From positions 9,321,501 to 9,385,500 of the forward strand of contig OZ005699.1 of the NCBI GenBank assembly GCA_963930775.1: 64,000 bases of DNA, written 5' to 3'. The notes under the pieces were generated by a model. It saw only the letters and a list, made by a program, of their open reading frames with translations, was not told the DNA's origin and did not search any database. The position numbers and the translations under genes are program-made. The DNA is from Cliona cf. orientalis. Lineage: Eukaryota; Porifera; Demospongiae; Clionaida; Clionaidae. Positions 2,103 to 42,200 of this stretch are shown one piece after another; the stretch's first letter is position 1, and each line of letters opens with the position of its first letter.

Positions 2103-5100
2103 TTATAGCTCATCCTTTGGTTTTGTCTTCTTGCTTTTAACCCTCTTTCCTTTTTCTTTGCTCTTTCCCTTCTCATCTTTCTTCTTCTGTTTCTTCTTAT
2201 TCCTTGCCCTCTGGTCGACCTCCTGCTCTGTCTTAGTTGGTCGAATCTGGTGCCGGAACTTCAAGAAGAACACCAAATCCGCCTCATCTTGAGGTTTCGG
2301 CGATACTTGTATTGTCTCACGTGAGTCCTTACGAGAGTACAAGAAAGCCGGGAGCTCTCCATCCGTCGTGATCCCCACCGGAAGATCGTTAAGTGCAAGG
2401 TTCATTTCCGTAAATACGATCTCGTCCGATCCCTCGAACCTAGCGGCAGTCTTTTCGTAGTAAGTCTCAGCCGCCTTGCAGTCTTGGTTATCGGGAAAGC
2501 ATAGCTTCACCATGACATTCTTGGCTGGGTTCAGCACCACATTCTCAAATGTTGACCCCACTACCTTGTGAATGAGAGCGTTTTTAGACCATTTTGGCTT
2601 CGGTTCTGAGTTGATACGAGGCTTAATTTTGCCCTTGACGAAAGCTTCAACAAACGCCTTCAGGCTATCAGCATCAATATCGTCATCTTTCATGGGGTAC
2701 CTGATGTGTCCTGGCGCCCATATCCCCACGGCAACATCCCCGCCCGTCTCTGAGAGACCGAGAAGTTTGATGTCTGCTTCGAAGTCTTCTTCATTTGCGA
2801 TGGCAAAGATGAGATCCTTTTTGTTGGCTTTGAAGTCTTTGGCCACTGAGGCCACCAGGTTGTGCCAATAGAGGGTGTCTGGATGTGGAGTAAAATGTAA
2901 AGTTTATGAACGCTTCCATGATTTCCGCATGCAATATTGAAATGCTGGATCTATAATTTTTAGAATGCGGCTACATTCGTACATGTATCTGTGTAGATAA
3001 CTTAGCTAAATTTAATAATCAAGATCCACAGAGCTATTATACCATCATACATGTTATTAAAATTACATAACACCGTATTTCTTCTAAAAAGTCAGCCCTC
3101 TAATTATTCGGCACCCTTTACCGAATGAGTCTCCAATTTTCGGCAAGGGTCGTCACGTGTACATGCTATAAACGGGAATAGAATGCGCACGCAGACAGAA
3201 TGTTGAATATTAACCTCTAAAAATTTGGCGAAGCTAAACCAATATTATTATTTTCATGCTGAATTTTAGAAGAAATACGGTACTTACTTTTGCACTCTCC
3301 AGGTTTCCAGTTGACATCAAGATAAGTGACGAGGAGCGGTCGGTGAGTGTAGACTCGAAGCTGATTGGCCTTTGTGAATTCACCAACCAGCGGACGAGAA
3401 TTGGACAGGAACAGCTCCTCGAGACCTTCAGCCTTCTTTGGCAGATTAGTGATGACAGAGAAGTCTTCCTCATACCTAGATACTAGATTACTGAGAGAGA
3501 GAGAGAAGGAGGGGGAACAGTGATTATTATCTTCGCAGTAATAGGCACAAATTAACTACCGTAAATCGCGAATATTTCGTGTCCAAAATATTTCGTGCAA
3601 TAACTTTTTGCGTTAAATAATTTTCGGACAAACGATCCTGTACCGCATTATCGTCAATATTGCCTATGTATTTTCGTGCATTTAATTTTCGCACAAGCCA
3701 GGCTGTCCGAAAATATTTTAACAACGAAATATTCGCGATTTACGGTAGTCAGTATCACATAACAATTATTATTGTTAGCTTAACTCGATGATGCACTCAC
3801 GTTCCAAAGTAGACTACGACAGTGTCCACCTTCTGCCCCATCTCCATGGCAACGGCGGCATCAGAACAGTGTCCCAGTTTCATGTCCATCCTGAGCAGAT
3901 TGCCTGCCTCCATGAAAGCCTCGACCAGCTTCGAGTTTGTAGATTCGGAGAAGAATGCAACCACCCTTGGCTCTGTGGGACTCTTGGAGAACTTCTTCAC
4001 TTCCTCTGCCGATCGCAGCGGGGTTGAGCTGGGACCTGACTGACGCTTCATGTACTCCACAATGCCTGAGGAGAAGAAGAAAATTTAATATTCTGTAGCT
4101 TTCTACTATATACTGTAGATCGGGATATTTTCGCCAGCAAAATATTTCGCTTGTAAATTTTTCGCATAGTCTAAATTTCGTCGACTGACTTTAGCGATAA
4201 AAATAGGTATAGGTTGACGTACGTTACACAATATATTTTGCGTGTTTAATTTTCGTCAGAAAAGGTCATCAACGAAAATTTTTAACGGCGAAAATTTCGT
4301 GATCAACGGTATTATGATAATTAACATTAATGGGAACAAGGCTAGAGATGCACATATAATATATTATGTATAGACTGCTTTATAATCATGACTCATAAGT
4401 ATTGCATATCATTACAAACGTATTATAGTACATCACAATGGTAAAATTTAATGCTATTATGTGGCCTGTGCTTGTGACGACCATTACCAACTCACCGTCC
4501 TCATTCCTCACTCCGGTGAAGTTGTATTGTTTCCCATGACGGAACACAATCAGCAAGGGGTATCCCCCTACACCAAATCGCTTAGCAACCTCCAGCTGGT
4601 CGGGCACGCCCACCCTCCCCAGTGGGATGGAAGGATCTAGAGCTCGAAGTCTGGGCAAGAGGAGAGACAAAGTGATAATGATAATGAGTTGAAATTTTTC
4701 ACTGGACAGAAATTTCGTCAATTAAGCCCAATTAATTGCTTTTACATTACAGATATTAAGTTTGGTGGAATAAATTTTTGCTAATACAGTAGGGGTTAAG
4801 ATCTTGAGGTTCTTGGTTGGGTAAATAGATACTAATACGCATAGCAAGTACGCTCGCTCTTGTTACACCAACACTGGCAGAATTGAATAATAATATTCTC
4901 TGAATATTATTATTCAATTCTGCCAGTGTTGGTGTAACAGTAGGGGTTGCCATATTTAACACCATAACAGACTAGAACTAGAGCTCTGTAGAGCACATAC
5001 CCCGCGCGCTCTGTAGCCACTGTAGCGCATATAATTTATAGTAATGCAACAGTTTTATTAGCTGACGACCCTTTCCAACTCTGAGCTTGAGCATGCGCAG

Positions 5101-19784: not shown

Positions 19785-22700
19785 ATGAGCATGGATAGAG
19801 CTGTAGGTTTTGTCGTGTAATTTTTATTATATTATAATGAGATGGTATTTATCTTTTCCAGGTTGATATTCTCGACCCTTTAACTTCACTGGAGTGGAAG
19901 GAGTGTAGGGGACCACCTGGGAATGTTACTGGTGCCCGTGCAGTGTGGCTGAAGGACAAGGTCTATATTGGGGGAGGAGTGATATTAGGAAATAGAAGAT
20001 CTGAAGCCAGGCTCTATATCTACACCCCAGCTACTGATGAATGGACTACACTGGATACTCCGGTCTATTTCTTTGGCCTCACCACCTACCACTCCCAGCT
20101 GGTACTAGTCGGAGGGTGGGAGTATGTTGATGAGAATATTGTGGGGGAACCTACTAATAAACTGTGGACATTGAGTGAAGATGGTCAGTGGCAGGAAACT
20201 CTTCCTCCTATGCCAAAACCATGCTCTCGTGCATCTGCTATGAGTCATGGAGACCATCTCCTGGTGATTAGTGATGATCCTAACAATGTTTATGTGTACA
20301 ATGGTCATCACTGGGCAAGTGCACAACATCCACCTCAGCAGCTGAACCCCATAGAGTCCACTAGTATCTTCAATGGCCATTGGTATGTGATGGGAAGAGG
20401 AGGGATTGTTTATTCTGCCTCCCTGGACTCGCTCCTAGCCATCTGTCAACCCAGTGAGACCTCACAGCCATCATCTCTATGGAAGAGATTGACCGATGCT
20501 CCTAGTCAATGGTGCTGTCCTGCTGTGTTTGGAAACAGGCTGGTTGCAGTAGGAAAAAGATCAACTGATACCACCACATCTCTCTTTGCCTACTCTTTCC
20601 TCACCCAGTCCTGGGTACATATGGGAGATACTCCTATCTCATCGACATCAATTCCCTGTGCTGTGCCTCTCCCCTCCAATGAGTTGATGATTGTGAGTGA
20701 ACGTACAGCATTCAGAGTTAGACTCACATGTAAGTTTATATTACGGTATCTGATAATAATAGAACTGCATACAATACTCTGTTATGTAGCTCCATAATCA
20801 ATGTCCTAACCGTTTATACATGCTCGTGTGTTATATACACAAAAAAGATTTTTTAGACGGACATGTTTCTTATATAGTCCATGTCCTAACCTGGAGGGCA
20901 TAAAAGATGCACTCTCCTACAAGTTTAAAAGGCTCACGATCAGTCAGAATTGTTGTGCCGTGTGCACAAACGAGGGTGTCGTGGCCTAGGAGCCATAGAG
21001 ATGCATTCTTGAGCGAACAGTGCAAAGCACAGTGTGTTTTGAGAGACATGCTCAGCAGGCCACCGAGCCTCGAGCGAAGCGAGAGGCGATGTCTGTTCTT
21101 TGTCGTAGTCTGGTGGTAGATTCGATGAGAGATAATATCGCCATTACAGTGCAACCTCGCTTATCCGGACCTCGTTTATCCGGAACCTCGATTTTCCGGA
21201 CTAGCCAGAGACCTAAAAATTCATTACCACGCATGCGCAGAAGGCGTGACCGATGATCTTTTGTGGGTGTGGTTATAGATTGAGCGATGAGGCTATGGAC
21301 TCTACAGGCTGCCTTTAGTCTCGTGCCCAGCCTGCGGAAAAGAGGCTGGGCACGAGACTAGCTTGCCTTGGCCAAAATCAACTGACCAAAGTACTTTTCT
21401 GAACACTGCTGGCCTGATCATACTGTATAGGTATCGTTTATAAGGTATCATAAACCAGGCGAGGAATGTAGGCATTTCAGTTATCCGGACATTTCACTTA
21501 TCCGGTATGGCAGCAATCGGCTGGTGGACAAAGGGGTCCGGATAATCGAGGTTGCACTGTACATGGTGAAATCGAGCAGCTGCAGTGAGGGATGTGGTCT
21601 ATGCCATAATAGCATAGGTTCAAAGTTTGGTGCTGCTTTCATCTGCACATGTGCACTGTACTAGCTGGCAATTGAATACTGAGCATGCTGTTTATAGTAG
21701 CTCATGTATGCATATTAGCCACATTATCCCATGATTGTGACATCGAACGTACTTGTAATAATTATAATAAATGTGTGGTTAACTCATTCACACTGCAGTG
21801 ACACCTTTTCATCCAGAAAGTTCATTTACCCTGAGAGCTGTGTCCTTACTGGAATCAGCTGCTGGTATCCCAGTAAGGACAACACTGAGTGACTACACTC
21901 GACTCATTCAGAATATCCTTGGTCTATCAATGGCCATTAGCCTTGATCTGAATGGAGTGCTAAGCTATTGGAAAAGCAACACAAAGTGGTTACGTCCATC
22001 GTGGCGAAATCTTCTCCTGATCATTTGTCTCCTTGACCAGGATGAGCTAGCTCAGAGGATGGAGACTTACCTCAGTGCTGGAGCAACAGAGGAGCTCTCC
22101 CCTACTAGAGGAAAACAAGGTGAGCTGGGGGGATAGTGTCAGCTGTAGCTACTCTCATTGCATGTGCGTGTGTGCTGTGTTCTAGGAGATGAAGAAGTGG
22201 ATGAGCAGATACGGTTGAGAGATGGCGTGATTTATCAATTGAAGCAGCAAATGGCTGCACAACAGCAGAGGATTGCTGATCTTGAGCATACAGTTAACGA
22301 ACTATCACAAATACCGATCAAGAAGGAAGGTATGTCCATTGCACCAACAATAGCCTCTGCTTGCTTGTTCAGTGTGTATATTTGTAGAAGATGATCAGAG
22401 AGACACTAAACCGTTGGTACATGAAGAGAAGCCAGTTGCTCTCCTTCCTGGCATGAAGACAGAGCCCAAAGAGGAACCACTTACTTTTGAAAGAGAGCCA
22501 CATGCTCTCCTTTCAGTGAAGAGGGAGATCAAGGAAGAAGCTATCCCAGTGACCAAAGCTGAGACAATGTCTGTTCAACCCACTACTGGTATGTTATCTC
22601 ATTCTATCACTGCAATAGTTTGTGGAGCTAGCTACATGTCCACAGCCACCTGGAACTTGCGTGGTGTAGAATTGTGTGGAGAAGTGACTGTGGTAGTCCA

Positions 22701-24288
22701 TTCTTCTCATGGTCAGCAAATCCCATGGCCTGGCTATGGCCTGAGGCTCAACATTCCTAAGGGCTGTCTGCCAGCAGGCATGGAGCAGTGCACCATCAAC
22801 ATCAAGGCCTCTCTAGCTGGCCAGTATGAGTTCCCTGAGAACTCCCATCTGGTCAGTACCATCTTCTGGCTGCGTTGTGAGGATGTGTACAAGTTCACTA
22901 AACCAATCACAGTGGAAATCCAGCACTGCGCTAAGTCAGAGAATGTTACTAATCTAAGCTTTGTTCGAGCTGTTTGCAGTCAGAAACAGCTCCCCTACAC
23001 CTTCAAACAGCTGCCGGGGGGTAACTTCACCAGCCACAGCTCCTATGGAGTCATTGAACTGAACAGCTTCTCTGGAGTGGGAGTAACACAAGAGGGGTCA
23101 GAGGACAGGGAATACTGTTCGCAACTCTTCTATATTGGACACCCAAATCCGTGCAATATTCATTTTGTAGTGTCATGGAATGTTGAAGCACATCTCACCG
23201 TGAGTTAGTTATCAAAATGCAACACAACTGCAGTTAGCCACTGTTTTGTTCCCTATAGGAGGTAACAAAGAAGTACGAAAAAGAAGGCGCTATACTTGGT
23301 GTACACCAACTTATAGAATTTGAGGCAGATGCCATCTCCCTGGACATTCCCATGGAGGGCCTCTCTATCAATGGCTGGAAGATCACACCACTGATGCGCC
23401 CTGTGGTGAGTTCTTGTGTACACCATATCCAGCCAACATAGCAACCGACTTCCCTCACTGGCTACAATCTCAGGTTACCAAGAAGCAGGTGGACAACTTT
23501 AGAGAGGGCAAGTTGACTCCATGCTGCCAGCTGAAGGCCGAGGTTTCTGGAAGGAGAAACAAGATTCCACGGTTAAGTCATCAAGTCAAGTTAGAAGGAG
23601 CCAAATATCCATACAATGTGTTTACCATTGACCTTCCTGCTGAAGGTATATGACATTGTACCAAAGCTCTATACATGTATACCCCAACCATGACTTTGTA
23701 GTAGCCTCGTGCATACTTTATTCCCATAATTCTCAACCTGCAGAGACATTTGGAGACTTGGCTGCAGCAGGTATACCTGACAAATTAAATTTTATCTACT
23801 GATAATAATATATATGATATTTATACAGCTCGTCCAGGTCCCCCTCCCAGTAAGAGAAGTAGACTGGATGCATCTGAACCATCTGCTTCTGGTGCATCCA
23901 CAGCTGGTCCATCCAATTCAGCCAGTGGCCTGGATACAAAACTCAGTGAGTGGAAATAAAATATTGTACGTGGTTAAGTTGGTGACATCAAGCTCTTGTT
24001 ATTTCAGACCTCAATTCAGAACATTTCAAAGTCTCCCAGTACCTGCAAAATCTCGATGAGGATCACATTCGTACAGTGGGAGGAGCTCTGGGACTGTCTT
24101 ACAACACACTGCATAAAATGACCAAGTACCCTGACGATATGGTGGCTGCCTGGCTGAGGAGGGAGGACTTTGTCATGAGTATGAGTGGAGAGCCAACATG
24201 GAGGACTCTGGTGGAGGCACTCAGGAAAGTAGGACAAGAAGGAACTGCTAGAGATATTGAGGAGAAAGAAAGTCAAAGCAATAGTTAG
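19785..24288 (+). CDS. Kelch-ZU5-Death protein, copy 1
   Basis: Ten exons, all in phase: 19785-19802, 19862-20729, 21799-22119, 22186-22329, 22388-23199, 23259-23405, 23474-23645, 23744-23770, 23829-23945 and 24008-24288; about 968 residues. Residues 7-295 are kelch-type repeats (WLKDKVYIGGG, HSQLVLVGG, SHGDHLLVISD). Residues 296-402 are helical, ending SWRNLLLII...LAQRMETYL, and look like a death-fold module. Residues 403-450 form a coiled coil. An acidic linker with several psi-K-x-E motifs follows. The ZU5 domain (LNIPKGCLPAG) begins near 560 and continues into a UPA-like region to about 827. A Pro/Ser linker (PPPSKRSRLD, a possible nuclear signal) leads to a C-terminal Death domain (AAWLRRED, GEPTWRTLVEAL). 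ZU5-UPA-Death is the arrangement of PIDD and UNC5, pointing to innate immune or death signalling. A 57-bp in-frame segment (22590-22646) could be a retained intron. Confidence 0.85.
21147..21559. repeat. Pogo/Tigger-like MITE, copy 1
   Basis: 413 bp flanked by TA. The ends are CAGTGCAACCTCG and CGAGGTTGCACTG, with repeated TTATCCGGA motifs inside. It sits in an intron of kelch-ZU5-Death copy 1. The same intron of copy 3 (near 40572) is empty at this point, reading GCCATACACGGTGA, so the insertion came after duplication. A 45-bp hairpin element is nested at 21316-21360. Non-coding, so it is non-autonomous. Confidence 0.9.
21316..21360. mobile_element. Tiny hairpin element with TAGTCTCG ends
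   Basis: 18-bp perfect arms (TAGTCTCGTGCCCAGCCT and complement) around a 9-nt loop. Flanks GGCTGCCTT and GCTTGCCTT match at 7 of 9 positions, consistent with a decayed 9-bp target duplication as in the related elements at 35735 and 37418. Confidence 0.65.
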
Positions 24289-24415: not shown

Positions 24416-25098
24416 AATACACACATCGATGCCGGGGCCTCAATCGCAGAGCTAGAGATGGAGTCTAAGATCAACTTTCGACTTCGAGTTTCGATGCTTC
24501 AATCAAAGGAGATGAACTCGACAGCACATGTACAGTACAGCTTCCGAACTTCAGATCGGTCGTGGCATGACGCGTGCTATAAATAGCCAGGCCATGGGAT
24601 TTGCTGACCATGAGAAGAATGGACCATTTCTCCGATCGAGGAGGAAGGTACCAACAATAGCCTCTGCTTGCTCATTCTGTGTATGATATTATTACATGTA
24701 TGTGTGTGTGCTTGTAGATGATCAGAGAGATACTAAACCATTCGTACATGAAGAGAAGCCAGTTACTCTCCCTCCTGATGTGAAGACAAAGCTCAAAGAG
24801 GAACCACTTACTCTTGAAGGAGAGCCACATGCTCTCCTTTCAGTGAAGAGGGAGATCAAGGAAGAAGCTGTCCCAATGACCAAAGCCGAGACAACGTCTG
24901 CTCAACCCACTACTGGTATGTCATCTCATTCTATCACTGCAATAGTTTGTGGAGCTAGCTACATGTCCACAGCCACCTGGAACTTGCGTGGTGTAGAAGT
25001 GTGTGAAGAAATGACTGTGGTGGTCCACTCTTTTTATGGTCAGCAAATCTCATGGCCTGGCTATGGCCTGAGGCTCAACATCCCTAAGGGCTGTCTGC

Positions 25099-25107
25099 CA
25101 GCAGGCA
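25099..25107. repeat. Left 9-bp target duplication of the foldback element
   Basis: CAGCAGGCA is present once in the ZU5 exon of copies 1 and 3, but twice in copy 2, here and at 33737-33745. Confidence 0.92.
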
Positions 25108-25229
25108 AGTAGCCATTAAAGACAGAACAGTTACCATTTATTAATTCAAGTTAAATCACGTGTACAGACACATATTATTATACATGTACTATACGTGTAT
25201 GCGCTATGTATCAATGCTACAATGTCACG

Positions 25230-28200
25230 GGATGACTGGAGGTGTCTGCTGGTGACTCGAGGTGTTCATTGGTGACTGAAGGTGACTAGAGGTGTCTTCT
25301 GGTGACTGGAGGTGTCTGCTGGTGACTCGAGGTGTTCGCTGGTGACTCGAAGTGTTTACTAGTGACTGGAGGTGTCTGCTAGTGACTGGAGGTGTTCGCT
25401 GGTGAATGGAGGTGTCTTCTGGTGACTGGAGGTGTTCGCTGGTGACTGAAGGTGACTGGAGGTGACTAGAGGTGTCTGCTGGTGACTGGAGGTGTTCGCT
25501 GGTGACTGAAGGTGTCTGCAGGTGACTCGAGGTGTTCGTTGGTGACTCGAGGTGTTTGCTGGTGACTGGAGGTGTCTGCTAGTGACTGGAGGTGTTCGCT
25601 GGTGACTGGAGGTGTCTGCAGGTGACTCGAGGTGTTCGTTGGTGACTCGAGGTGTTTGCTGGTGACTGGAGGTGTCTGCTAGTGACTGGAGGTGTTCGCT
25701 GGTGACTGGAGGTGTCTGCAGGTGACTCGAGGTGTTCGTTGGTGACTCGAGGTGTTTGCTGGTGACTGGAGGTGTCTGCTAGTGACTGGAGGTGTTCGCT
25801 GGTGACTGGAGGTGTCTGCAGGTGACTCGAGGTGTTCGTTGGTGACTCGAGGTGTTTGCTGGTGACTGGAGGTGTCTGCTAGTGACTGGAGGTGTTCACT
25901 GGTGACTGGAGGTGTCTGCAGGTGACTCTAGGTGTTCGTTGGTGACTCGAGGTGTTTGCTGGTGACTGGAGGTGTCTGCTAGTGACTGGAGGTGTTCGCT
26001 GGTGACTGGAGGTGTTTACTAGTGACTGAAGGTGTCTGCTAGTGACTGGAGGTGTTCGCTGGTGAATGGAGGTGTCTTCTGGTGACTGGAGGTGTTCGCT
26101 GGTGACTGAAGGTGACTGGAGGTGACTAGAGGTGTCTTCTGGTGACTGGAGGTGTCTACTGGTGACTCAAGGTGTTCGCTGGTGATTGGAGGTGTCTTCT
26201 GGTGACTGGAGGTGTTCGCTGGTGACTGAAGGTGACTGGAGGTGACTAGAGGTGTCTGCTGGTGACTGGAGGTGTCTGCAGGTGACTCGAGGTGTTCGTT
26301 GGTGACTCGAAGTGACTGGAGGTGTCTACTAGTGACTGGAGGTGTCTTCTGGTGACTGGAGGTGTCTGCTAGTGACTGGAGGTGTTCGCTGGTGAATGGA
26401 GGTGTCTTCTGGTGACTGGAGGTGTTCGCTGGTGACTGAAGGTGACTAGAGGTGTTCGCTGGTGACTGAAGGTGACTGGAGGTGACTAGAGGTGTCTGCT
26501 GGTGACTGGAGGTGTCTGCAGGTGACTCGAGGTGTTTGTTGGTGACTCGAAGTGACTGGAGGTGTCTACTAGTGACTGGAGGTGTCTTCTGGTGACTGGA
26601 GGTGTCTGCTAGTGACTGGAGGTGTCTGCTAGTGACTGGAGGTGTTCGCTGGTGACTAGCGGTGTCTGCTGGTGACTGGAGGTGTCTGCTGGTGACTCGA
26701 GGTGTTCGCTGGTGACTGAAAGTGACTAGAGGTGTCTTCTGGTGACTGGAGCTGTCTCCTGGTGACTGGAGGTGTTCGCTGGTGACTGAAGGTGTTTTCT
26801 GGTGACTGGAGGTGTCTGCTGGTGACCGGAGGTGTTTGCTGGTGACTGGAGGTGTCTGCAGGTGACTCGAGGTGTTCGTTGGTGACTCGAGGTGTTTGCT
26901 GGTGACTGGAGGTGTCTGCTAGTGACTGGAGGTGTTCGCTGGTGACTGGAGGTGTCTGCAGGTGACTCGAGGTGTTCGTTGGTGACTCGAGGTGTTTGCT
27001 GGTGACTGGAGGTGTCTGCTAGTGACTGGAGGTGTTCGCTGGTGACTGGAGGTGTCTGCAGGTGACTCGAGGTGTTCATTGGTGACTCGAGGTGTTTGCT
27101 GGTGACTGGAGGTGTCTGCTAGTGACTGGAGGTGTTCGCTGATGACTGGAGGTGTTTACTAGTGACTGAAGGTGTCTGCTAGTGACTGGAGGTGTTCGCT
27201 GGTGAATGGAGGTGTCTTCTGGTGACTGGAGGTGTTCGCTGGTAACTGGAGGTGACTAGAGGTGTCTTCTGGTGACTGGAGGTGTCTACTGGTGACTCAA
27301 GGTGTTCGCTGGTGATTGGAGGTGTCTTCTGGTGACTGGAGGTGTTCGCTGGTGACTGAAGGTGACTGGAGGTGACTAGAGGTGTCTGCTGGTGACTGGA
27401 GGTGTCTGCAGGTGACTCGAGGTGTTCGTTGGTGACTCGAAGTGACTGGAGGTGTCTACTAGTGACTGGAGGTGTCTTCTGGTGACTGGAGGTGTCTGCT
27501 AGTGACTGGAGGTGTTCGCTGGTGACTGGAGGTGTTTACTTGTGACTGAAGGTGTCTGCTTGTGACTGGAGGTGTTCGCTGGTGAATGGAGGTGTCTTCT
27601 GGTGACTGGAGGTGTTCGCTGGTGACTGAAGGTGACTGGAGGTGACTAGAGGTGTCTTCTGGTGACTGGAGGTGTCTACTGGTGACTCAAGGTGTTCGCT
27701 GGTGATTGGAGGTGTCTTCTGGTGACTGGAGGTGTTCGCTGGTGACTGAAGGTGACAGGAGGTGACTAGAGGTGTCTGCTGGTGACTGGAGGTGTCCGCA
27801 GGTGACTCGAGGTGTTTGTTGGTGACTCGAAGTGACTGGAGGTGTCTACTAGTGACTGGAGGTGTCTTCTGGTGACTGGAGGTGTCTGCTAGTGACTGGA
27901 GGTGTCTGCTAGTGACTGGAGGTGTTCGCTGGTGACTAGCGGTGTCTGCTGGTGACTGGAGGTGTCTGCTGGTGACTCGAGGTGTTCGCTGGTGACTGAA
28001 GGTGACTAGAGGTGTCTTCTGGTGACTGAAGCTGTCTCCTGGTGACTGGAGGTGTTCGCTGGTGACTGAAGGTGTTTTCTGGTGACTGGAGGTGTCTGCT
28101 GGTGACCGGAGGTGTTTGCTGGTGACTGGAGGTGTCTGCAGGTGACTCGAGGTGTTTGTTGGTGACTCGAGGTGTTTGCTAGTGACTGGAGGTGTCTTCT

Positions 28201-28955
28201 GGTGACTGGAGGTGTCTGCTAGTGACTGGAGGTGTTCGCTGGTGACTAGAGGTGTCTGCTGGTGACTCGAGGTGTTTGCTGGTGACTGAAGGTGACTAGA
28301 GGTATTTTCTGGTGACTGGAGGTGTCTCCTGGTGACTGGAGGTGTTTGCTGGTGACTGAAGGTGTTCGCTGGTGATTGGAGGTGTCTGCTAGTGACTGGA
28401 GGTGTTCGCTGGTGACTGAAGTTGACTAGAGGTGACTAGAGGTGTCTTCTGGTGACTGGAGGTGTCTACTGGTGACTCAAGGTGTTCGCTGGTGATTGGA
28501 GGTGTCTTCTGGTGACTGAAGGTGACTGGAGGTGACTAGAGGTGTCTACTGGTGACTGGAGGTGTCTGCAGGTGACTCGAGGTGTTCGTTGGTGACTCGA
28601 AGTGACTGGAGGTGTCTACTAGTGACTGGAGGTGTCTTCTGGTGACTGGAGGTGTCTGCTAGTGACTGGAGGTGTCTTCTGGTGACTGGAAGTGTCTGCT
28701 GGTGACTCAAGGTATTCACTAGTGACTGAAGGTGTTTGCTAGTGACTAGAGGTGTCTGCTGGTGACTCAAGGTGTTCGCTGGTGACTCGAGGCGTTCCCT
28801 GGTGACTGAAGGTGACTAGAGGTGCCTTCTGGTGACTCAAGGTGTTTGCTAGTGACTGGAGGTGTCTACTGGTGACTGGAGGTGTCTTCTGGTGACTGGA
28901 GGTGTTCACTGGTGACTGAAGGTGACTTCTGGTGACTGGAGGTGTTCTCTGCTGA
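25230..28955. repeat. Left tandem array, 20-bp units
   Basis: About 185 units of a 20-bp repeat. Higher-order periods are visible: a 100-bp block beginning near 25561 recurs about four times and again near 26840-27110, and longer segments (about 26000-26780 and 27150-28080) resemble each other. This points to repeated unequal exchange or slippage. Open frames encoding SHQQTPPVT-type peptides are by-products of the period. Confidence 0.93.
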
Positions 28956-29615
28956 TTGGTGTGATACAAATTGTTTTACTGGCTGATGAAGTCAATGTGT
29001 TCATTATTGATGACGTGATAATGATATTAATATTACTGCAGAGACTGCAGTTTATAGATTTATTATACTGGTCAACATTGTCGTTACATAATGGACAAAA
29101 GAGCATCTATTCTTCTATTTTGTTTTAAATAAACTACTTTTACAAGGCAGTGGAAGGATTCTATGTGCATGTTAAGTATTTACAGGCCTAGAAGTGAACA
29201 GTGGCTTTGCCGAAAGTAGAGCAAGAACTCATCCAATCATTTTCTGTTAAGAACGTTAGAAATTTCTGTAGCTTCTTGTTGAATTCAATCAATAAACTTT
29301 CTTATAGCAAAATTATCAAATTGGGATACACTTTAGGTTGAAGTTCCTTGTCCTCGATCTTTTCTTTTATCGCTCGCCTCTAATTTTGTCTGGATGCCAG
29401 CAACACAACTTTTTTAGCAGAATTTTCACCAAATACTGTCACGATATGAAATACAGTAAAACCACCATGCAGTGCTTAAGTTTCATAACATGACCATAAT
29501 AATGATTGTAATGTTGACCAGTAAAATAACTGCAGTCTCTACAGTAATAGCTATTATCATTGCCATCAATAGTGAATACTTTAACTTCATCAGCCAATGA
29601 ACAATTTTTGTCACA

Positions 29616-32600
29616 CTAGTCACTGTCAATCACCAGTGAACACCTGCAGTCACCAGAGAACACGTCCACTTACTAGCAGACACCTCCAGTCACCAGAAGA
29701 CACCTTCAGTCACCAGCAAACACCTCCAGTCACAGAAGACACCTCCAGTCACCAGCAAACACCTCCAGTCACTAGCAGTCACCAGAAGACACCTCCAGTC
29801 ACTAGTAAACACCTCCAGTCACCAGCAAACACCTCCAATCACTAGCAGACACCTCCAGTCACTAGCAAACACCTCCAGTCACTAGTAGACACCTCCAGTC
29901 ACCAGAAGACACCTCTAGTCACTAGTAAACACCTCCAGTCACTAGCAGACACCTCCAGTCACCAGAAGACACCTCCAATCATCAGAAGACACCTTCAGTC
30001 ACCAGCGAACACCTCCAGTCACTAGCAGACACCTCCAGTCACCAGAAAACACCTCCAGTCACCAGAAGACACCTCTAGTCACCTTCAGTCACCAGCAAAC
30101 ACCTCAAGTCACCAGCAGACACCTCCAGTCACCAGAAGACACCTCTAGTCACAAGCGAACACCTCCAGTCACTAGCAAACACCTCCAGTCACTAGTAGAC
30201 ACCTCCAGTCACCAGAAGACACCTCTAGTCACTAGTAAACACCTCCAGTCACTAGCAGACACCTCCAGTCACCAGAAGACACCTCCAATCATCAGAAGAC
30301 ACCTTCAGTCACCAGCGAACACCTCCAGTCACTAGCAGACACCTCCAGTCACCAGAAAACACCTCCAGTCACCAGAAGACACCTCTAGTCACCTTCAGTC
30401 ACCAGCAAACACCTCAAGTCACCAGCAGACACCTCCAGTCACCAGAAGACACCTCTAGTCACAAGCGAACACCTCCAGTCACTAGCAGACACCTCCAATC
30501 ACCAGAAGACACCTCCAGTCACTAGTAGACACCTTCAGTCACTTCGAGTCACCAACGAACACTTCGAGTCACCTGTAGACACCTCCAGTCACCAGCAGAC
30601 ACCTCCAGTCACTAGCAGACACCTCCAGTCACCAGAAGACACCTCTAGTCACCTTCAGTCACCAGCGAACACCTCCAGTCACTAGCAGACACCTCCAGTC
30701 ACCAGAAGACACCTCCAGTCACTAGTAGACACCTCCAGTCACTTCGAGTCACCAACGAACACCTCGAGTCACCTGCAGACACCTCCAGTCACCAGCAGAC
30801 ACCTCCAGTCACTAGCAGACACCTCCAGTCACCAGAAGACACCTCTAGTCACCTTCAGTCACCAGCGAACACCTCCAGTCACCAGAAGACACCTCCAGTC
30901 ACTAGTAGACACCTCCAGTCACTTCGAGTCACCAACGAACACCTCGAGTCACCTGCAGACACCTCCAGTCACCAGCGAACACCTCCAGTCACCAGAAAAC
31001 ACCTCCAGTCACCAGAAGACACCTCTAGTCACCTTCAGTCACCAGCAAACACCTCCAGTCACTAGCAGACACCTCCAGTCACTTCGAGTCACCAACAAAC
31101 ACCTCGAGTCACCTGCAGACACATCCAGTCACCAGCGAACACCTCCAGTCACCAGCAGACACCTCCAGTCACCAGCGAACACTTCCAGTCACCAGAAGAC
31201 ACCTCCAGTCACTAGTAGACACCTTCAGTCACTTCGAGTCACCAACGAACACCTCGAGTCACCTGCAGACACCTCTAGTCACCAGTGAACACCTCCAGTC
31301 ACCAGAAGACACCTCTAGTCACCTTAAGTCACCAGCGAACACCTCCAGTCACTAGCAGACACCTCCAGTCACCAGAAGACACCTCCAATCACTAGTAGAC
31401 ACCTCCAGTCACTTCGAGTCACCAACGAACACCTCGAGTCACCTGCAGACACCTCCAGTCACCAGCGAACACCTCCAATCACCAGAAAACACCTTCAGTC
31501 ACCAGCGAACATCTCCAGTCACCAGCAGACACCTCCAGTCACCAGAAGACACCTCTAGTCACCTTCAGTCACCAGCGAACACCTTGAGTCACCAGCAGAC
31601 ACCTCCAGTCACCAGCAGACACCTCTAGTCACCAGCGATCACCTCCAGTCACTAGCAGACACCTCCAGTCACCAGAAGACACCTCCAGTCACTAGTAGAC
31701 ACCTCCAGTCACTTCGAGTCACCAACGAACACCTCGAGTCACCTGCAGACACCTCCAGTCACCAGCAGACACCTCTAGTCACCTCCAGTCACCTTCAGTC
31801 ACCAGCGAACACCTCCAGTCACCAGAAGACACCTACAATCACCAGCGAACACCTTGAGTCACCAGTAGACACCTCCAGTCACCAGAAGACACCTCTAGTC
31901 ACCTCCAGTCACCTTCAGTCACCAGTGAACACCTCCAGTCACCAGAAGACACCTCCATTCACCAGCGAACACCTCCAGTCACTAGCAGACACCTCCAGTC
32001 ACTAGTAAACACCTCCAGTCACCAGCGAACACCTCCAGTCACTAGCAGACACCTCCAGTCACCAGAAGACACCTCTAGTCACCTTCAGTCACCAGCGAAC
32101 ACCTTGAGTCACCAGCAGACACCTCCAGTCACCAACAGACACCTCTAGTCACCTCCAGTCACCAGAAGGCACCTCCAGTCACCTCGAGTCACCTGCAGAC
32201 ACCTCCAGTCACCAGTAGACACCTCTAGTCACCTCCAGTCACCTTCAGTCACCAGCGAACACCTCCAGTCACCAGAAGACACCTACAATCACCAGCAAAC
32301 ACCTTGAGTCACCAGTAGACACCTCCAGTCACCAGAAGACACCTCTAGTCACCTCCAGTCACCAGAAGACACCTCCATTCACCAGCGAACACCTCCAGTC
32401 ACTAGCAGACACCTCCAGTCACTAGTAAACACCTCCAGTCACCAGCAAACACCTCAAGTCACCAACGAACACCTCGAGTCACCTGCAGACACCTCCAGTC
32501 ACCAGCGAACACCTCCAGTCACCAGTGGACACATCAAGTCACCAGCAGACACTTTTAGTCACCTCCAGTCACCTTCAGTCACCAGCAAACACCTCCAGTC

Positions 32601-33613
32601 ACCAGAAGACACCTCCAATCACCAGCGAACACCTTGAGTCACTAGTAGACACCTCCAGTCACTAGAAGACACCTCTAGTCACCTCCAGTCACCTTCAGTC
32701 ACCAGCGAACACCTCCAGTCACCAGAAGACACCTCCATTCACCAGCGAACACCTCCAGTCACTAGCAGACACCTCCAGTCACTACTAAACACCTCCAGTC
32801 ACCAGCGAACACCTCCAGTCACTAGCAGACACCTCCAGTCACCAGCAAACACCTCGAGTCATCAACGAACACCTCGAGTCACCTGCAGACACCTCCAGTC
32901 ACCAGCGAACACCTCCAGTCACCAGCGGACACCTCCAGTCACCAGCAGACACTTTTAGTCACCTCCAGTCACCTTCAGTCACCAGCGAACACCTCCAGTC
33001 ACCAGAAGACACCTCCAATCACCAGCGAACACCTTGAGTCACCAGTAGACACCTCCAGTCACTAGAAGACACCTCTAGTCACCTCCAGTCACCTTCAGTC
33101 ACCAGCGAACACCTCCAGTCACCAGAAGACACCTCCATTCACCAGCGAACACCTCGAGTCACCTGCAGACACCTCCAGTCACCAGCGAACACCTCCAGTC
33201 ACTAGCAGACACCTCCAGTCACCAACGAACACCTCGAGTCACCTGCAGACACCTCCAGTCACCAGCGAACACCTCCAGTCACTAGCAGACACCTCCAGTC
33301 ACCAGCAAACACCTCGAGTCACCAACGAACACCTCGAGTCACCTGCAGACACCTTCAGTCACCAGCGAACACCTCCAGTCACCAGCAGACACCTCTAGTC
33401 ACCAGCGAACACCTCCAGTCACTAGCAGACACCTTCAGTCACAAGTAAACACCTCCAGTCACTAGCAGACACCTCCAGTCACTAGTAAACACTTCGAGTC
33501 ACCAGCGAACACCTCGAGTCACCAGCAGACACCTCCAGTCACCAGAAGACACCTCTAGTCACCTTCAGTCACCAATGAACACCTCGAGTCACCAGGAGAC
33601 ACCTCCAGTCATC
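29616..33613. repeat. Right tandem array, inverted 20-bp units
   Basis: About 200 units of the complementary repeat (ACCTCCAGTCACCAGCAGAC type). It is the inverted counterpart of the left array but differs in unit order and length, so the arms have evolved independently since insertion. Confidence 0.93.
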
Positions 33614-35067
33614 CCGCGACATTGTAGCATTGATACATAGCGCATACACGTATAGTACATGTATAATGATATGCGTCTGTACACGTGATTTAACTTGAAT
33701 TAATAAATGGTAACTGTTCTGTCTTTAATGGCTACTCAGCAGGCATGGAGCAGTGCACCATCAACATCAAGGCCTCTCTAGCTGGCCAGTATGAGTTCCC
33801 TGAGAACTCCCATCTGGTCAGTGCCATCTTCTGGCTGCGCTGTGAGGATGTGCACAAGTTCACTAAACCAATTACAGTGGAAATCCAGCACTGTGCTAAG
33901 TCAGAGAATGTTACTAATCTTAAGTTAGGCTTTGTTCGAGCTGTTTGCAGTCAGGAACAGCTCCCCTACACCTTCAAACAGCTGCCGGGGGGTAACTTCA
34001 CCAGCCACAGCTCCTATGGAGTCATTGAACTGAACAGTTTCTCTGGAGTGGGAGTAACACAAGAGGGGTTAGAGGACAGGGAATACTGTTCATAACTCTT
34101 CTATCTTGGACACCCAAATCTATGCAAAATTCATTTCGTAGTTACCTGGAATGTTGAAGCACATCTCACTGTGAGTTAGTCATCAATGCAACACAACTGC
34201 AGTTAGCTATTGTTCCCTCTAGGAGGTAATAAAGAAGTACGAAAAAGAAGGTGCTATACTTGGTCTACACCAACCTATAGAATTTGAGGCAGATGCCATC
34301 TCCCTGGACATTCCCATGGAGGGCCTCTCTATCAAGGGCTGGGAGATCACACCACTGATACGCCCTGTGGTGAGCTCTTGTGTACACCATATCCACCCAG
34401 CATAGCAACCCACTTCCCTCACTGGCTACAACCTCAGGTGACCAAGAAGCAGGTGGACAACTTTAGAGAGGGCAAGTTGACTCCATGCTGCCAGTTATTA
34501 GCTGAAGTTTCTGGAAAGAAGAAAAAGGTCCCAACTCTGAAACATCAAGTCAATCTGAGAGGAGCAAAGTATCCTAATGATGTCTTTGTCATCAACCTTC
34601 CTGCTGGAAGTATGTAACGTAATAATAATAATAATAATTACACCAACCATGATATTGTGATAGCTTCATGCATACTACTTTCTTTCACCCCCTTTTTATC
34701 TTCAGATCCTAATTCTCAACCTGCAGAGACATTAGGAGACTTGGCTGCAGCAGGTATACCAGACAAACTTATAATCTACTAGCATGACACTCACTGTGAT
34801 ATTACACTATTATACAGATCGTCCAGGTCCCCCTCCCAGTAAAAGAAGTAGACTGGATGCATCTGAACCATCTGCTTCTGGTTCATCCATAGCTGGTCCA
34901 TCTTCAGCCAATGGGATGGATACAAAACTCGGTGAGTGAAGACCAAAAGATTTGTATAATTATCATGATAATAATATTGGATATCAATGATATCACCAGC
35001 TATAGGGCTAGGGGGGGAGTGGGTATAGTGCATCGCATTGTGTGGTTTTGTTATTTATTCCTATAGC

Positions 35068-35100: not shown

Positions 35101-35734
35101 CTGAGAATAATTTTATACTGTAGGAGGTTTCTACATTAAATCAGTGCCTCCAAGCTGCTCTCCTGTCTTTCAGTATAAATATTCCCATTTTTCAGTATTT
35201 TGTATGCGTTTTCAGTATTAACAAAGGGCTCCACATATGTTGTATGTACTGAATTCCCCCAGTTTTCAGTATTTTATCAGTATTTATGGTCAGAATTCAG
35301 TAAAAAAATACCGATAAATCCATATACTTGGAGGCACTGTTAAATATTTTATTCTTCTCACCTTTGCAGTGAAACCAGAGCTAAAAGATCTTCTAAAAGA
35401 ACTCTACACAAAAGCTTCAGAATGGATCAACATTGGTGTCTTCCTTGGCATAGACCCAGGGAAACTGGATAACATCAAGGCTGAGAATCACACAGTTCAA
35501 GATTGTCTTCGTGAGATGCTGAGGATTTGGCTGAAGGGGATTTCCTCTCCTCCCTCTTGGGCGACCATTGCTGACGCTGTTGAACTGCTAGGAGATCAAA
35601 ACCTCGCAGATCAACTGAGAACCAAATATCATGTCCCCCCACACCAAAACTAGTCTACGCCAGACAAGACTATTCCAGCAGAAATTATATTCTCACATAA
35701 TGATAATATTATGACATTGTGTATACTGATTTCC

Positions 35735-35789: not shown

Positions 35790-37417
35790 CTGATTTCCCG
35801 TGTGGTAAGGTATCCACTCAAGTGTAGCAATCAGCATCCCTCACTGGTAGTGACAAAGAAGCAGGTGAACAATTTTACTAAATTAGAGAGAGCAACCATA
35901 CTGGAAGGAGAAAGAAGATCCCTGTCCTTAATCAAGTGCTCTTGCAAGTGGCAAGGCAGCCATACAACTTTTTTACTCTAGATCTAGAGCTATACCTGTT
36001 AATGGTAATAAGTAGCTAAGCTAGTCATGTATGTATTTGTATGGCTGAAATAGGTATGACAATAATTATTTTAGATTCTCAAGCTACACAGACGTCTGGA
36101 GATTTATCCTTTGCAGGTATACAGCTCACGATAACAATATACTTGTTTAAACCACTCGATCATTCATGCATCAGTATTATTATTATTTTATTATACACTT
36201 TCTTCATCATGCAGAAGCTGGTACCCCTCCCAAGAAGGGGCAAGTGGAAACGGAGGAAACGGAAAACGGAAACGGAAAGCTGAAACGGAAAACTGAAGCA
36301 GAAATCGGAAACGGAAAAGCTGAAATTGGGAAATGGTCGTCAACATTCGTTGCGCTAATGGCATTTTTTGCGCATGCGCGATCTGTTTGGGGTTAAGAAA
36401 TGCCAGCGTCTTTCAGCTTAGCCTGACAGCTGGATACAAGATTTCTGGCTCGTATCATAGTCTCGACCTAAGCTTGAGGATTAGGAGTAGGTAAATTATG
36501 CTAATATTTTGGCCTATAATGCTATTCTCAAATGCTCAAAAAATCCCTCAAGAAGTGCACCTATAATTTGCCCATTATGCTTAAGTTGAATAGACTATAA
36601 TGTTAACAAATGAGACGTGATGAGACTCAGTCACACTATCATAAAGTACAGCCATTTCAATTTTACACATGTTCAGATTTGAAAGTGGGTACCAGCTGAT
36701 TGATCAATCGTTTACGAGTTCATAATGTATAGTCCAGGCGTTATGACAAAGGTCAGTTAATAGCTACTTGCAATTGTGTGCCCGAAAATCCTCAAAATTT
36801 GCCAGTTGATGCCTATAATACTAGCATAATTCTCAAAATTTAATGCCGTGACGTTACACACACCTATTATGCTTAAAATTATGCCAGCGTAATTTACCTA
36901 CCCCTATTGAGGATTAGGTTATATTAATAGTGACGAGAGCTAGAGGTCTAGTTCACTGTTGGCTGCTAGCACAGCACACCACCTCCTATGGGTGAATAGT
37001 TATTACAAAGACTCCAATATGGCACCCAGACTCTGGGCCAGAGTATAAGATGCTGAATGCTAGACCAGGCAGTAAAATTTTGAAGTTGGTGAAGGAAGTC
37101 CAGAGTGACAAACTAAATATCAGTATTCAGTGGCTTAGACTCTGAGGTGATTATGGCCCTTGTTCAAGGTCAAAAGTGGCTCAAAATCTGTTATTATTAT
37201 TACCGTGCAAAGCAGCAAAAGTCTACCAAATAAAGAATCACACTGTAGTCAATAGCTACTAGTCTAACTACTTTAGGCTTGGTACAGTAACCGTTGATGA
37301 GCCCGACGGCTCACAAAATAGCTGTACAGTCTGTACTCTAGAATCACAAATGGATATCAGTGGAGTACTTTACTGAATCAGCAATCCTGATATCAGTATA
37401 GGAGTTCAGTAGTAACA

Positions 37418-38322: not shown

Positions 38323-39073
38323 TTACATAAATTAATATCACTTGGATGTTTTACAAGGTCTTCACACTAGCTGCAGGGAACGAATAATACCGTGGCATCA
38401 ATCTTCATTAAATTCATATGCATGGCCAGATATCAAAGATACTAGGTCAATGCATGTTTAATATTTCTGACGACCACTACCAAATTTCAGCTTTTCCGTT
38501 TCCGCTTTCCGCTTCAGTTTTCCGTTTCCGTTTTCCGTTTCCTCTGTTTCCACTTGCCCCCCAAGAAGCGAAGTAAATTAGAGGCTGGTCCATCTTCCAC
38601 CAGAGGGCTGGATACAAAGCTCGGTGAGTGGAAATAATTATTAATGTAGCAATTTGTGTGTTGTTTGTGGCATCAAGCTTCAAATTATTTCAGATCACAA
38701 TTCAGACCATTTCAAAGTCTCCCAATTAATACCTGCAGAATCTCGACGAGGATCACATTAGTACAGTGGGAGGAGCTCTGGGACTGTCTTACAGCAAACT
38801 GCGTAAGATGACCAAGTACCCTGACGGTATGGTGGCTGCCTGGCTGAGGAGGGAGGACTTTGTGATGAGTATGAGTGGAGAGCCAACATGGAGGACTCGG
38901 GTGGAGGCACTCAGGAAAGTAGGACAAGAAGGAACTGCTAGTAGAGATATATATTGAGGAGAAAGAAAGTCAAAGCAATAGTTAGATTGACTCAATTTGA
39001 AAATCATAGAATAATGTATGACATTGTGTTTATAATGAAACACTTCCGGCCCCATTGGCAACGGTGGTACATA

Positions 39074-39214: not shown

Positions 39215-42200
39215 ATGGATAGAGCTGTGCGTTTTATAACACTAGCTGTGAGATTTTATAGTGAGATGGTGTTTGTCTTTTCCAGGTTGATATCCTCCAC
39301 CCTTTAGCTTCACTGGAGTGGAGGGAGTGTAGGGAACTGTCTATGTATATTGGTAGGGATGCCAAGGCAGTGTGGCTGAAGGACAAGGTCTATGTGGGGG
39401 GAATAACACCTGGAAGTTACAGACCTGATGCCAGGCTCTATGTCTACACTTCAGCTACTGATGCGTGGACTACACTGGATACTCCGGTCTATTGGTTTGG
39501 CCTCACCACCTACCACTCCCAGCTGGTACTAGTCGGAGGGAGGGAGTATGTTGGTGAGAATGTTAAGGGGGAACTTACTAATAAACTGTGGACATTGAGT
39601 GAAAATGGTCAGTGGCAGGAAACTCTTCCTCCTATGCCAACACCATGCACTATTGCATCTGCTGTGAGTCATGGAGACCATCTCCTGGTGATTAGTGATG
39701 ATCCTAGCAAAGTTTATGTATACAATGGTCATCACTGGTCAAGTGCACAACATCCACCTCAGCAGCTGTACCCCATAAACTCCACTGTCTTCAATGGTGA
39801 CTGGTATGTGATGGAAGGTGGAGGGATTGTTTATTCTGCCTCCCTGGACTCACTCCTAGCCAGCTGTCAACCCAGTGAGATCTCACAGCCATCATCTCTA
39901 TGGAAGAGACTGACCGATGCTCCTAGTGAATTGTGCTATCCTGCTGTGTTTGGAAACAGGCTGGTTGTAGTAGGAAGAAGATCAACTGGTACCACCACCA
40001 TAATATGTCTCCATGCCTACTCCTCCCTCACCCAGTCCTGGGTACACATGGGAGATGCTCAATCAATACCAATTTATTTCCCTCCCTGTGCTGTGCCTCT
40101 CCCCTCCAATGGATTGATGATTGTGAGTGGACAGAGAGCATTCCAATCTAGACTCACATGTAAGTTTATATTATCTGATAATAATAGAGCTGTATACATT
40201 ACACTGTACATGTTATGTAGCTCCATAATCAATATCATCCCGCGGCGTAACAGTTTGTACATGCTCGTGTGTTTGTTATACTATATACAACGAAAAATTT
40301 CAGATGGACATTTTTCTTATATAGTCCGTGTCTTAACCTGGAGGGCATAAAAGATGTGCTCTCCTACAAGTTTAGAAGGCTCACAATCAGTCAGAATTGT
40401 TGTGCCGTGTGCTCAAACGAGGATGTCATGGCCTAGGGGCCATAGAGATGCATTCTCGAGCGAACAGTGCAAAGCGCCGCATGTTTCGAGAGGCCTGCTC
40501 AGCAGCAAAGCAAGAGGTGAGGTCTGTTCTTTGTCATAGTCTGGTGGTAGATTCGACGAGAGAGAATGTTGCCATACACGGTGAGTTCGAGCAGCTGCCC
40601 TTGGCCTGCAGTGAGGGGTGTGGTCTACACCATAAGAGCATAGATTCAAAGTTTGGTGCTGCTTTCATCTACACATGCGCACTGTACTAATTGGCAATTG
40701 AGTACTGAGCATGCTGCTTATAGTAGCTCATGCATGCATATTAGCCACATTATCCCATGATTGAACATCAAATGTACTTGTAATAATTATAACAGATGTG
40801 TGGTTAACTCATTCATACTGTAGTGACACATTTTGATCCAGAAAGTTCATTTACCTTGAGAGCTGTGTCTTCACTGGAATCAGCTGCTGGTATCCCAGTG
40901 ATGAAAACACTGAGTGACTACATTCACCATGTTCAGAATATCCTTGGTCTGACAATAACTACTAACTTTGATCTAAATGAACTGTTGGACTATTGGATAA
41001 GGGGCAAACTGTGGTTATCTCCATCATGGCAAAATCTTCTCCTGATCATTCATCTCCTCCACCAGGATGAGCTAGCTCAGAGGATGGAGACTTACCTCAG
41101 TGCCGGAGCAACAGAGGAACTCTCCCCTACTAGAGGAAAACAAGGTGAGCTGGGGGGATAGTGTCAGCTGTAGCTACTCTCATTGCATGTGCGTGTGTGC
41201 TGTGTTCTAGGAGATGAAGAAGTGGATGAGCAGATACGGTTGAGAGATGATGCTATTTATCAATTGAAGCAGCAAATGTCTACACAACAGCAGAGGATTG
41301 CCGACCTTGAATATACAGTTAACAAACTGTCACAAATACCGATCAAGAAGGAAGGTTTGTCCATTGCACCAACAATAGCCACTGCTTGCTTGTTCGGTGT
41401 ATGTGCATGCATAATAATAAAATTTAATATTGTGTGTGTGCTTGTAGAAGATGATGAGAGAGACACTAAACCGTTGGTACATGAAGAGAAGCCAGTTGCT
41501 CTCCTTCCTGGTGTGAAGACAAAGCCCAAACAGGAACCACTTACTCTTGAAGGAGAGCCACATGCTCTCTTTTCAGTGAAGAGGGAGATCAAGGAAGAAG
41601 CTGTCCCAATGACCAAAGCTGAGACAACGTCTGCTCAACCCACTACTGGTATGTCATCTCATTCTATCACTGCAATAGTTTGTGGAGCTAGCTACATGTC
41701 CACAGCCACCTGGAACTTGCGTGGTGTAGAAGTGTGTGGAGAAATGACTGTGGTGGTCCATTCTTCTCATGGTCAGCAAATCCCATGGCCTGGCTATGGC
41801 CTGAGGCTCAACATCCCTAAGGGCTGTCTGCCAGCAGGCATGGAGCAGTGCACCATCAACATCAAGGCCTCTCTAGCTGGCCAGTATGAGTTCCCTGAGA
41901 ACTCCCATCTGGTCAGTGCCATCTTCTGGCTGCGCTGTGAGAATGTTCGCAAGTTCACTGAACCAATCACAGTGGAAATCCAGCACTGTGCTAACTCAGA
42001 GAATGTTACTAATCTAAGCTTTGTTCGAGCTGTTTGCAGTCAGAAACAGCTCCCCTACACCTTCAAACAGCTGCCGGGGGGTAACTTCACCAGCCACAGC
42101 TCCTATGGAGTCATTGAACTGAACAGTTTCTCTGGAGTGGCAGTAACACAGAAGGGGTCAAAGCACAGGAAATACTGCTCGAGACTTTTTTATATGCCTT

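What the first reader, a model, noticed from the sequence alone, without database searches (positions are those of the whole stretch)
25099..33745. 8.6 kb foldback element whose 9-bp target duplication makes an exactly restoring GC-AG intron
Seen: CAGCAGGCA is duplicated around the element. The left junction reads CAG|GCAAGT, the consensus of GC-type donors, and the right junction ends CTCAGCAG. Splicing 25105-33742 rebuilds the ZU5 exon of the paralogues base for base, in frame. Inferred: the insertion could be silent at the mRNA level, an introner-like birth of an intron by a DNA element with the target site supplying both splice sites. A stop codon 350 bp downstream (34093) shows the copy has since decayed or is truncated.
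Basis: partly seen in the sequence, partly recalled or inferred. Interest (0 to 1): 0.85.

Follow-up and report, generated by a model that had tools for sequence, protein, structure and literature searches.

The report
Young foldback transposon inside a coding exon
A recently inserted 8.6-kilobase hairpin-shaped jumping gene sits inside a protein-coding exon, and the nine bases it duplicated happen to look like splice sites, so it could in principle be cut out of the message like an intron, but nothing shows that it is and the gene copy is already broken.

Summary
Element 25108-33736 (8,629 bp) is flanked by a perfect 9-bp duplication (CAGCAGGCA). Paralogues carry the empty site, and joining 25104 to 33743 would restore the exon in frame. 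Four complete copies were found in the genome (8,629, 7,955, 7,017 and 1,722 bp), each with a perfect 9-bp duplication. Their ends are nearly identical and their arms are degenerate 10/20-bp tandem arrays: a young, non-autonomous element of Foldback (Mutator/Foldback) architecture. The 'intron' reading is only partly supported. One of four duplications gives an exactly restoring AG|GY site; the C13 copy's GTAAGT runs antisense to the flanking ORFs. The left arm holds 142 donors that outscore the GC donor, the right arm 109 competitive CAG/TAG acceptors, and three neighbouring introns are about 60-70 nt. The copy lacks its paralogues' upstream exons and has a stop at 34093, so a 'silent' insertion has little to protect. 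No RNA data were available. Best reading: ordinary foldback insertion, splice sites supplied by target sequence, splicing possible but unproven. Loose end: three of seven insertion sites fit NAGnnnGYA, which would make insertions spliceable in frame; noticed after the fact, it is kept only as the novel case.

The parts
25099..25107 (+). left copy of the 9-bp target-site duplication CAGCAGGCA; supplies the CAG before and the GCA of the GC donor
25108..33736 (.). non-autonomous foldback element, 8,629 bp
25108..25236 (+). outer terminal inverted repeat, left (AGTAGCCATTAAAG...)
   Evidence: 8 ends in 4 complete copies, identical over the outer 60 bp
25233..28945 (+). left arm: degenerate 10/20-bp tandem array (TGACTGGAGGTGTCTGCTGG); holds 142 of the 143 donors that outscore the GC donor
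28946..29639 (.). spacer/loop with inner inverted segments; longest ORFs about 60-90 aa, partly in the arrays; also present in the C13 (interrupted) and C14 copies
29640..33611 (-). right arm: the inverted tandem array, with 109 of the 115 CAG/TAG acceptors at least as pyrimidine-rich as the end acceptor
33608..33736 (-). outer terminal inverted repeat, right
33737..33745 (+). right copy of the target-site duplication; supplies CAGCAG (possible acceptors 33739 and 33742)
25105..33742 (+). hypothetical GC-AG intron that would restore the exon exactly
   Evidence: sequence level only; no RNA evidence
24650..25107 (+). start of the interrupted paralogue copy (homology begins in the intron before the ZU5 exon; upstream exons absent) and left part of the exon
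33746..34092 (+). right part of the ZU5 exon, up to the stop codon TAA 34093-34095
   Evidence: the halves alone give no Pfam match, the intact neighbouring exon 22354-23205 gives ZU5 (PF00791, E 3.8e-05)
35318..35650 (+). Death-domain exon downstream, still open
   Evidence: PF00531, E 9.3e-07

Best explanation
This is a recent insertion of a non-autonomous Foldback-type DNA transposon into the ZU5 exon of a 5'-truncated tandem copy of a ZU5-Death gene. A transposase acting in trans, most likely Mutator-like (inferred), cut the target with a 9-bp stagger, and repair made CAGCAGGCA on both sides (the duplication is shown). The target held a CAG|G exon motif and the element begins with AGT, so the left junction reads CAG|GCAAGT and the right one CAGCAG|G by coincidence of target and end. 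Unspliced transcripts stop three bases into the element. Exact removal is possible but competes with many stronger donors and acceptors in the arms, so if the locus is transcribed at all I expect mainly truncated or mis-spliced RNA and perhaps a minor restored form (inferred).
For: Four complete copies with perfect 9-bp duplications CAGCAGGCA, GAGAAAGTA, GATTTTATG and CCTGTTTAC. Seven of the eight ends differ from one another at 0-4 of 129 positions; C11 right, C14 left and C5 left are identical, hence recent activity. The eighth (C5 right) differs from the others by 4-6 with its 3-base deletion counted as three (the 7-9 includes three overhanging columns). Arms are 10/20-bp tandem arrays and no long ORF is visible in the loop. 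Empty sites in paralogues. MULE domains are plentiful in the genome: 58 hits listed, 56 over the cut-off. The copy starts at 24650 without upstream exons and has a stop at 34093. 142 donors in the left arm score above 25105. Three neighbouring introns, whose ends I placed by eye, are 59, 59 and 71 nt.
Against: An AG|GYAAGT junction is rare (7 of 5,097 9-mers, three of them this site and its paralogues). The 3' end has a fair branch-like TGGTAAC, a T-rich stretch and no other AG for 84 nt upstream of 33739. Apart from the stop, the exon-like stretches downstream are still open. No autonomous partner was found: no MULE hit lies within 10 kb of an end.
Confidence: 0.82

Rival explanations
1. The insertion is a working, silent GC-AG intron: the spliceosome removes 25105-33742 (or to 33739) efficiently and the mRNA is unchanged or gains one Ala.
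For: Both junctions fit consensus; both acceptors keep the frame. The GC donor scores 5.66, within the range of five donor-like sites of the neighbouring paralogue (5.3-9.5; not all need be real donors). The partner arm is transcribed about 8 kb later, so U1 could bind first (inference).
Against: 142 stronger donors in the left arm and 109 right-arm CAG/TAG with at least as many pyrimidines. In the minimum-energy fold of the left end the donor is largely paired with upstream exon sequence, and the two ends form a near-perfect duplex. Neighbouring introns estimated at 59-71 nt. Stop at 34093 and missing 5' exons.
Confidence: 0.1
2. The family has a target preference (NAGnnnGYA, or at least ...GYA) that with its ends (AGT..., ...TACT) tends to create spliceable insertions, as introners do.
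For: Window CAGCAGGCA, C13 copy GAGAAAGTA and the nine bases outside the lone end at C13:4518443 (AAGGTTGCA) fit; at least 2 of 9 other readings by chance about 1.3e-4, at least 2 of 12 about 2.3e-4.
Against: The pattern was defined after seeing the sites. GATTTTATG, CCTGTTTAC, TACCGTTAC and AAGCTCAAA do not fit, so 3 of 7, and among complete copies 2 of 4; for the three lone ends the duplication itself is unverified. An eighth, weaker end (C11:4714237) does not fit either. At C13 the signal lies antisense to the flanking ORFs. Counting only the other complete copies, the chance of at least one match is 1.1%.
Confidence: 0.07
3. Assembly artefact: a misplaced minisatellite or collapsed hairpin.
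For: Long inverted tandem arrays are hard to assemble; array lengths may be inexact.
Against: Four unlinked complete copies with matching ends, each with its own perfect 9-bp duplication, and empty sites in paralogues.
Confidence: 0.01

Closest known systems
Foldback (FB) elements of Drosophila and FB-like elements; Tetris of D. virilis (PMC4079207, passages read)
   Same: Long inverted repeats built of tandem repeats, a middle domain of variable content without coding capacity, few complete copies, 8-10 bp duplications in Tetris, no autonomous partner found for Tetris
   Different: Other repeat unit (10/20 bp against about 220 bp in Tetris), other ends, other host
Tm1 Mutator/Foldback family of root-knot nematodes (PMC3169594, abstract and passages read)
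   Same: Composite TIRs with tandem units, mostly 9-bp duplications, non-autonomous members
   Different: Tm1 has asymmetric 7-bp end motifs and a member encoding a FLYWCH-MULE transposase; here ends are fully inverted and no transposase copy was found
Introners (Gozashti et al. 2022, PMC9860276, passages read)
   Same: Splice sites can be recruited wholly or partly from the target-site duplication; GC donors occur; extra codons occur
   Different: Introner families there have 5 to over 2,000 copies and median lengths of 30-654 nt; here there are 4 complete copies, one in an exon, 8.6 kb, and no shown splicing
Plant transposons spliced as or with introns (maize Ac and Spm mentioned in PMC4219821, passages read; Ds recalled)
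   Same: Element ends can mimic splice sites, so an insertion may be removed from RNA
   Different: The soybean case of that paper is shown by RNA-seq but lies inside an existing intron

Membership tests
Foldback / Mutator-Foldback transposons | long inverted repeats made of short tandem repeats around a loop | tested here: met
   the C5 copy (1,722 bp) is almost arms alone
Foldback / Mutator-Foldback transposons | about 9-bp target-site duplication without strict consensus | tested here: met
   4 of 4 complete copies have perfect 9-bp duplications, all different
Foldback / Mutator-Foldback transposons | mobilised by a MULE-type transposase with matching ends | tested here: inconclusive
   56 of 58 listed MULE-domain hits over the cut-off, none within 10 kb of an end listed; no autonomous copy found
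Introner | several copies inserted as introns in genes | tested here: not met
   1 of 4 complete copies is shown to lie in an exon and has a restoring pattern; gene structure around the other three is known only from ORFs and Pfam matches
Introner | splice sites supplied by element and/or duplication | tested here: met
   sequence level only, this copy
Introner | insert is spliced out of mRNA | not testable with these tools
   no RNA data on hand
GC-AG intron | strong surrounding donor consensus (AG|GCAAGT, recalled) | tested here: met
   25102-25110 CAGGCAAGT
GC-AG intron | splicing at the GC donor | not testable with these tools
   no RNA data on hand

The most novel reading that the evidence does not exclude
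A foldback transposon family that prefers targets of the form NAGnnnGYA. With its fixed ends (AGT... and ...TGGTAAC...TACT) it carries half of each splice site, so that exonic insertions become multi-kilobase introns adding at most one codon: an animal introner made of a giant hairpin.
Probability: 0.06. Interest if true: 0.75.

Novelty: new member of a known kind. Interest (0 to 1): 0.35.

Why it matters
It is a clean, recent example of how a target-site duplication alone can place both splice dinucleotides at the ends of a new insert, with empty paralogous sites as controls. If RNA showed exact removal, it would be intron birth caught within an animal gene family by a very long hairpin element. 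As it stands, it adds a foldback family with a tiny copy number and shows how easily splice consensus appears around a 9-bp duplication (3.4% of 5,097 9-mers for any AG|GY).

Tried and rejected
Autonomous partner by shared ends: none found. The end pattern gave 12 hits in each: eight ends of the four complete copies, lone ends at C17:1899010, C11:1235667 and C13:4518443, and one weaker match each. The weak C15 match lies in kinase-like coding sequence by eye and was dropped as chance. The C11:4714237 match was looked at and not counted as a member; its site does not fit NAGnnnGYA.

Partners of the lone ends: none seen for C13:4518443 and C11:1235667 within the fetched stretches; C17 was looked at only near its end. 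The end at C13:4518443 has no second match in the genome search. Array repeats elsewhere: among the listed rows (list cut short of its 303 matches) only the four complete copies, C11:1235667 and one row at C1:10071765. At C1 an end-less array abuts CAG and a short ORF; I could not show an intron there and rejected it as evidence.

Acceptor scoring was by pyrimidine fraction only. The donor matrix is human and recalled; no splice-site matrix of this species was available. In one search the translations were in the wrong frame and were redone. Mends after checking: the through-running rows are 25, not 27, because rows that begin at the site itself are uninformative; the copy starts at 24650 (my note says 24651); the large difference of the C5 right end was partly an artefact of the cut. 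None of these changed an odds figure. The species was not identified: the ZU5/Death expansion and compact genome suggest a sponge, which is recalled knowledge and untested. Literature: the listings of searches showed no paper on this element or on sponge introners; only the top rows are listed and most subscription papers are not held. Huff et al. 2016 was not held (known to me by recall and from a reference list).
Full report
What was checked. The window was read at both junctions. The duplication CAGCAGGCA occurs at 25099-25107 and 33737-33745; between them lies an element of 8,629 bp that begins AGTAGCCATTAAAGACAG and ends with the inverted copy. The arms are degenerate tandem arrays of a 10/20-bp unit, in opposite orientation, around a spacer of about 0.7 kb without a long ORF.

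Empty site. Three same-strand paralogues aligned across the place read without interruption. With a paralogue's 131-bp stretch as query, 25 of 31 genome rows run through the site from both sides (one is the query itself), two rows are the halves of the window copy, and four rows begin at or beyond the site and are uninformative. No other listed row shows the break. Joining 25104 to 33743 gives LNIPKGCLPAGMEQCTINIK, the reading of the neighbouring paralogue; the earlier CAG at 33739 would add one Ala in frame. Without splicing the frame ends in TAG at 25110-25112.

The family. A search with the 129-bp end found eight good ends, two per element, making four complete copies: C11 (the window, 8,629 bp), C14:1901351-1909305 (7,955 bp), C13:6883140-6890156 (7,017 bp) and C5:3915111-3916832 (1,722 bp). 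Each has a perfect 9-bp duplication: CAGCAGGCA, GATTTTATG, GAGAAAGTA, CCTGTTTAC. Seven of the eight ends differ from one another at 0-4 of 129 positions and three are identical; C5 right differs by 4-6, a 3-base deletion counted as three. Three lone or decayed ends were also seen. The neighbourhoods differ. C14 lies about 0.5 kb downstream of an FKBP-type exon (PF00254) and C5 upstream of a kinase ORF. C13 lies between two ubiquitin-like ORFs on the minus strand, the right-hand one just under Pfam's cut-off. Long TIRs of short tandem repeats, a loop without evident coding capacity and 9-bp duplications are the architecture of Foldback elements, as described for Tm1 and Tetris (PMC3169594 and PMC4079207, passages). 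The genome has many MULE domains (58 hits, 56 over the cut-off), which could act in trans, but no autonomous copy with this end was found.

Is the splice pattern more than chance? For a 9-bp duplication, exact restoration only needs AG|GY inside the duplicated nine bases: 175 of 5,097 9-mers (3.4%) from seven mostly coding stretches, against 4.6% in random DNA. The stricter AG|GYAAGT formed with this element's end occurs at 7 of 5,097, three of which are this very site in the window copy and two paralogues; random DNA gives 0.21%. One of four complete copies, the window's, has an exact pattern on either strand. The C13 copy has GTAAGT and TACTGAG, which would add one codon, but antisense to the flanking ORFs. 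Adding the lone ends, whose duplications are unverified, three of seven insertion sites fit NAGnnnGYA. The formal probability for the other readings is about 1e-4, yet the motif was formulated after seeing them, an eighth weaker end does not fit, and with complete copies alone the figure is 1.1%. I keep it as an unexplained lead, not as evidence.

Would it be spliced? In a simple matrix built from recalled human frequencies the GC donor scores 5.66, and 143 of 1,085 GT/GC sites between 25090 and 33740 score higher, 142 of them in the left arm, the first at 25252. Of 115 CAG/TAG acceptors with at least the pyrimidine content of the end acceptor, which includes the two end acceptors themselves, 109 lie in the right arm. 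In favour, the end acceptor has a branch-like TGGTAAC, a T-rich stretch and no AG in the 84 nt upstream, and the fold of the right end is no more stable than its shuffles. In the predicted fold of the left end the donor is largely paired with upstream exon sequence, and the two ends form a near-perfect duplex (-226 kcal/mol). Three introns of the neighbouring paralogue, with ends placed by eye, are 59, 59 and 71 nt. My estimate is that exact removal, if it happens, is a minor outcome.

State of the gene copy. Homology to the paralogues starts at 24650, in the intron before the ZU5 exon; the exons further upstream are missing, and a 44-bp inverted piece of the ZU5 exon lies at 24583-24626. The TAA at 34093 stands where five of eight paralogues examined have CAA (L003, L004, L005, L007, L008); L002 and L006 have other sense codons and L051 cannot be compared there. 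The exon-like stretches downstream, one with a Death domain, are open. The order of insertion, truncation and stop cannot be told, but a restored exon would not give a full paralogue-like protein from this copy alone. Splicing onto upstream exons of the neighbouring gene is conceivable and untested.

Comparison and novelty. Recruitment of splice sites from target-site duplications, GC donors and codon additions are described for introners (PMC9860276, passages), whose families there have 5 or more copies and median lengths of 30-654 nt. This element resembles that mechanism only in principle and is not an introner by the features tested. It is a new member of a known kind of transposon.

Limits. 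No RNA data, no second individual, no relatives' genomes and no species-specific splice matrix were available. Array lengths depend on the assembly.

Noticed in passing
C11 paralogue, L051 about 3008-3458: Another paralogue's same exon carries an insertion of roughly 450 bp with inverted ends (TACCGTATAGCGGGTAATTTTCGTGG...), MITE-like with a TA duplication by eye; two DNA elements have hit the same exon family.
   Followed up: partly
window 24583-24626: A 44-bp inverted fragment of the ZU5 exon (matches 41754-41797 and, over 42 bp, 22696-22737) sits just before the 5' breakpoint of the interrupted copy at 24650, as template switching might leave.
   Followed up: partly
insertion sites: Three of seven insertion sites of the family fit NAGnnnGYA, i.e. 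acceptor + three bases + donor start; motif noticed after the fact, an eighth weaker end does not fit.
   Followed up: partly
L067 2586-2919 (C1): A tandem array of the same unit without element ends directly abuts CAG and a short ORF that looks like a C-terminal exon; either a relic of an element or the source minisatellite.
   Followed up: partly
L021 1912-3633 (C5): The shortest complete copy has lost the loop and most repeats; its arms meet near L021:2310, showing how the arrays shrink.
   Followed up: no
window 36255-36325 and 38486-38542: Two short arrays of GGAAAC-type units in inverted orientation about 2.2 kb apart, downstream of the gene copy; may mark another mobile element.
   Followed up: no
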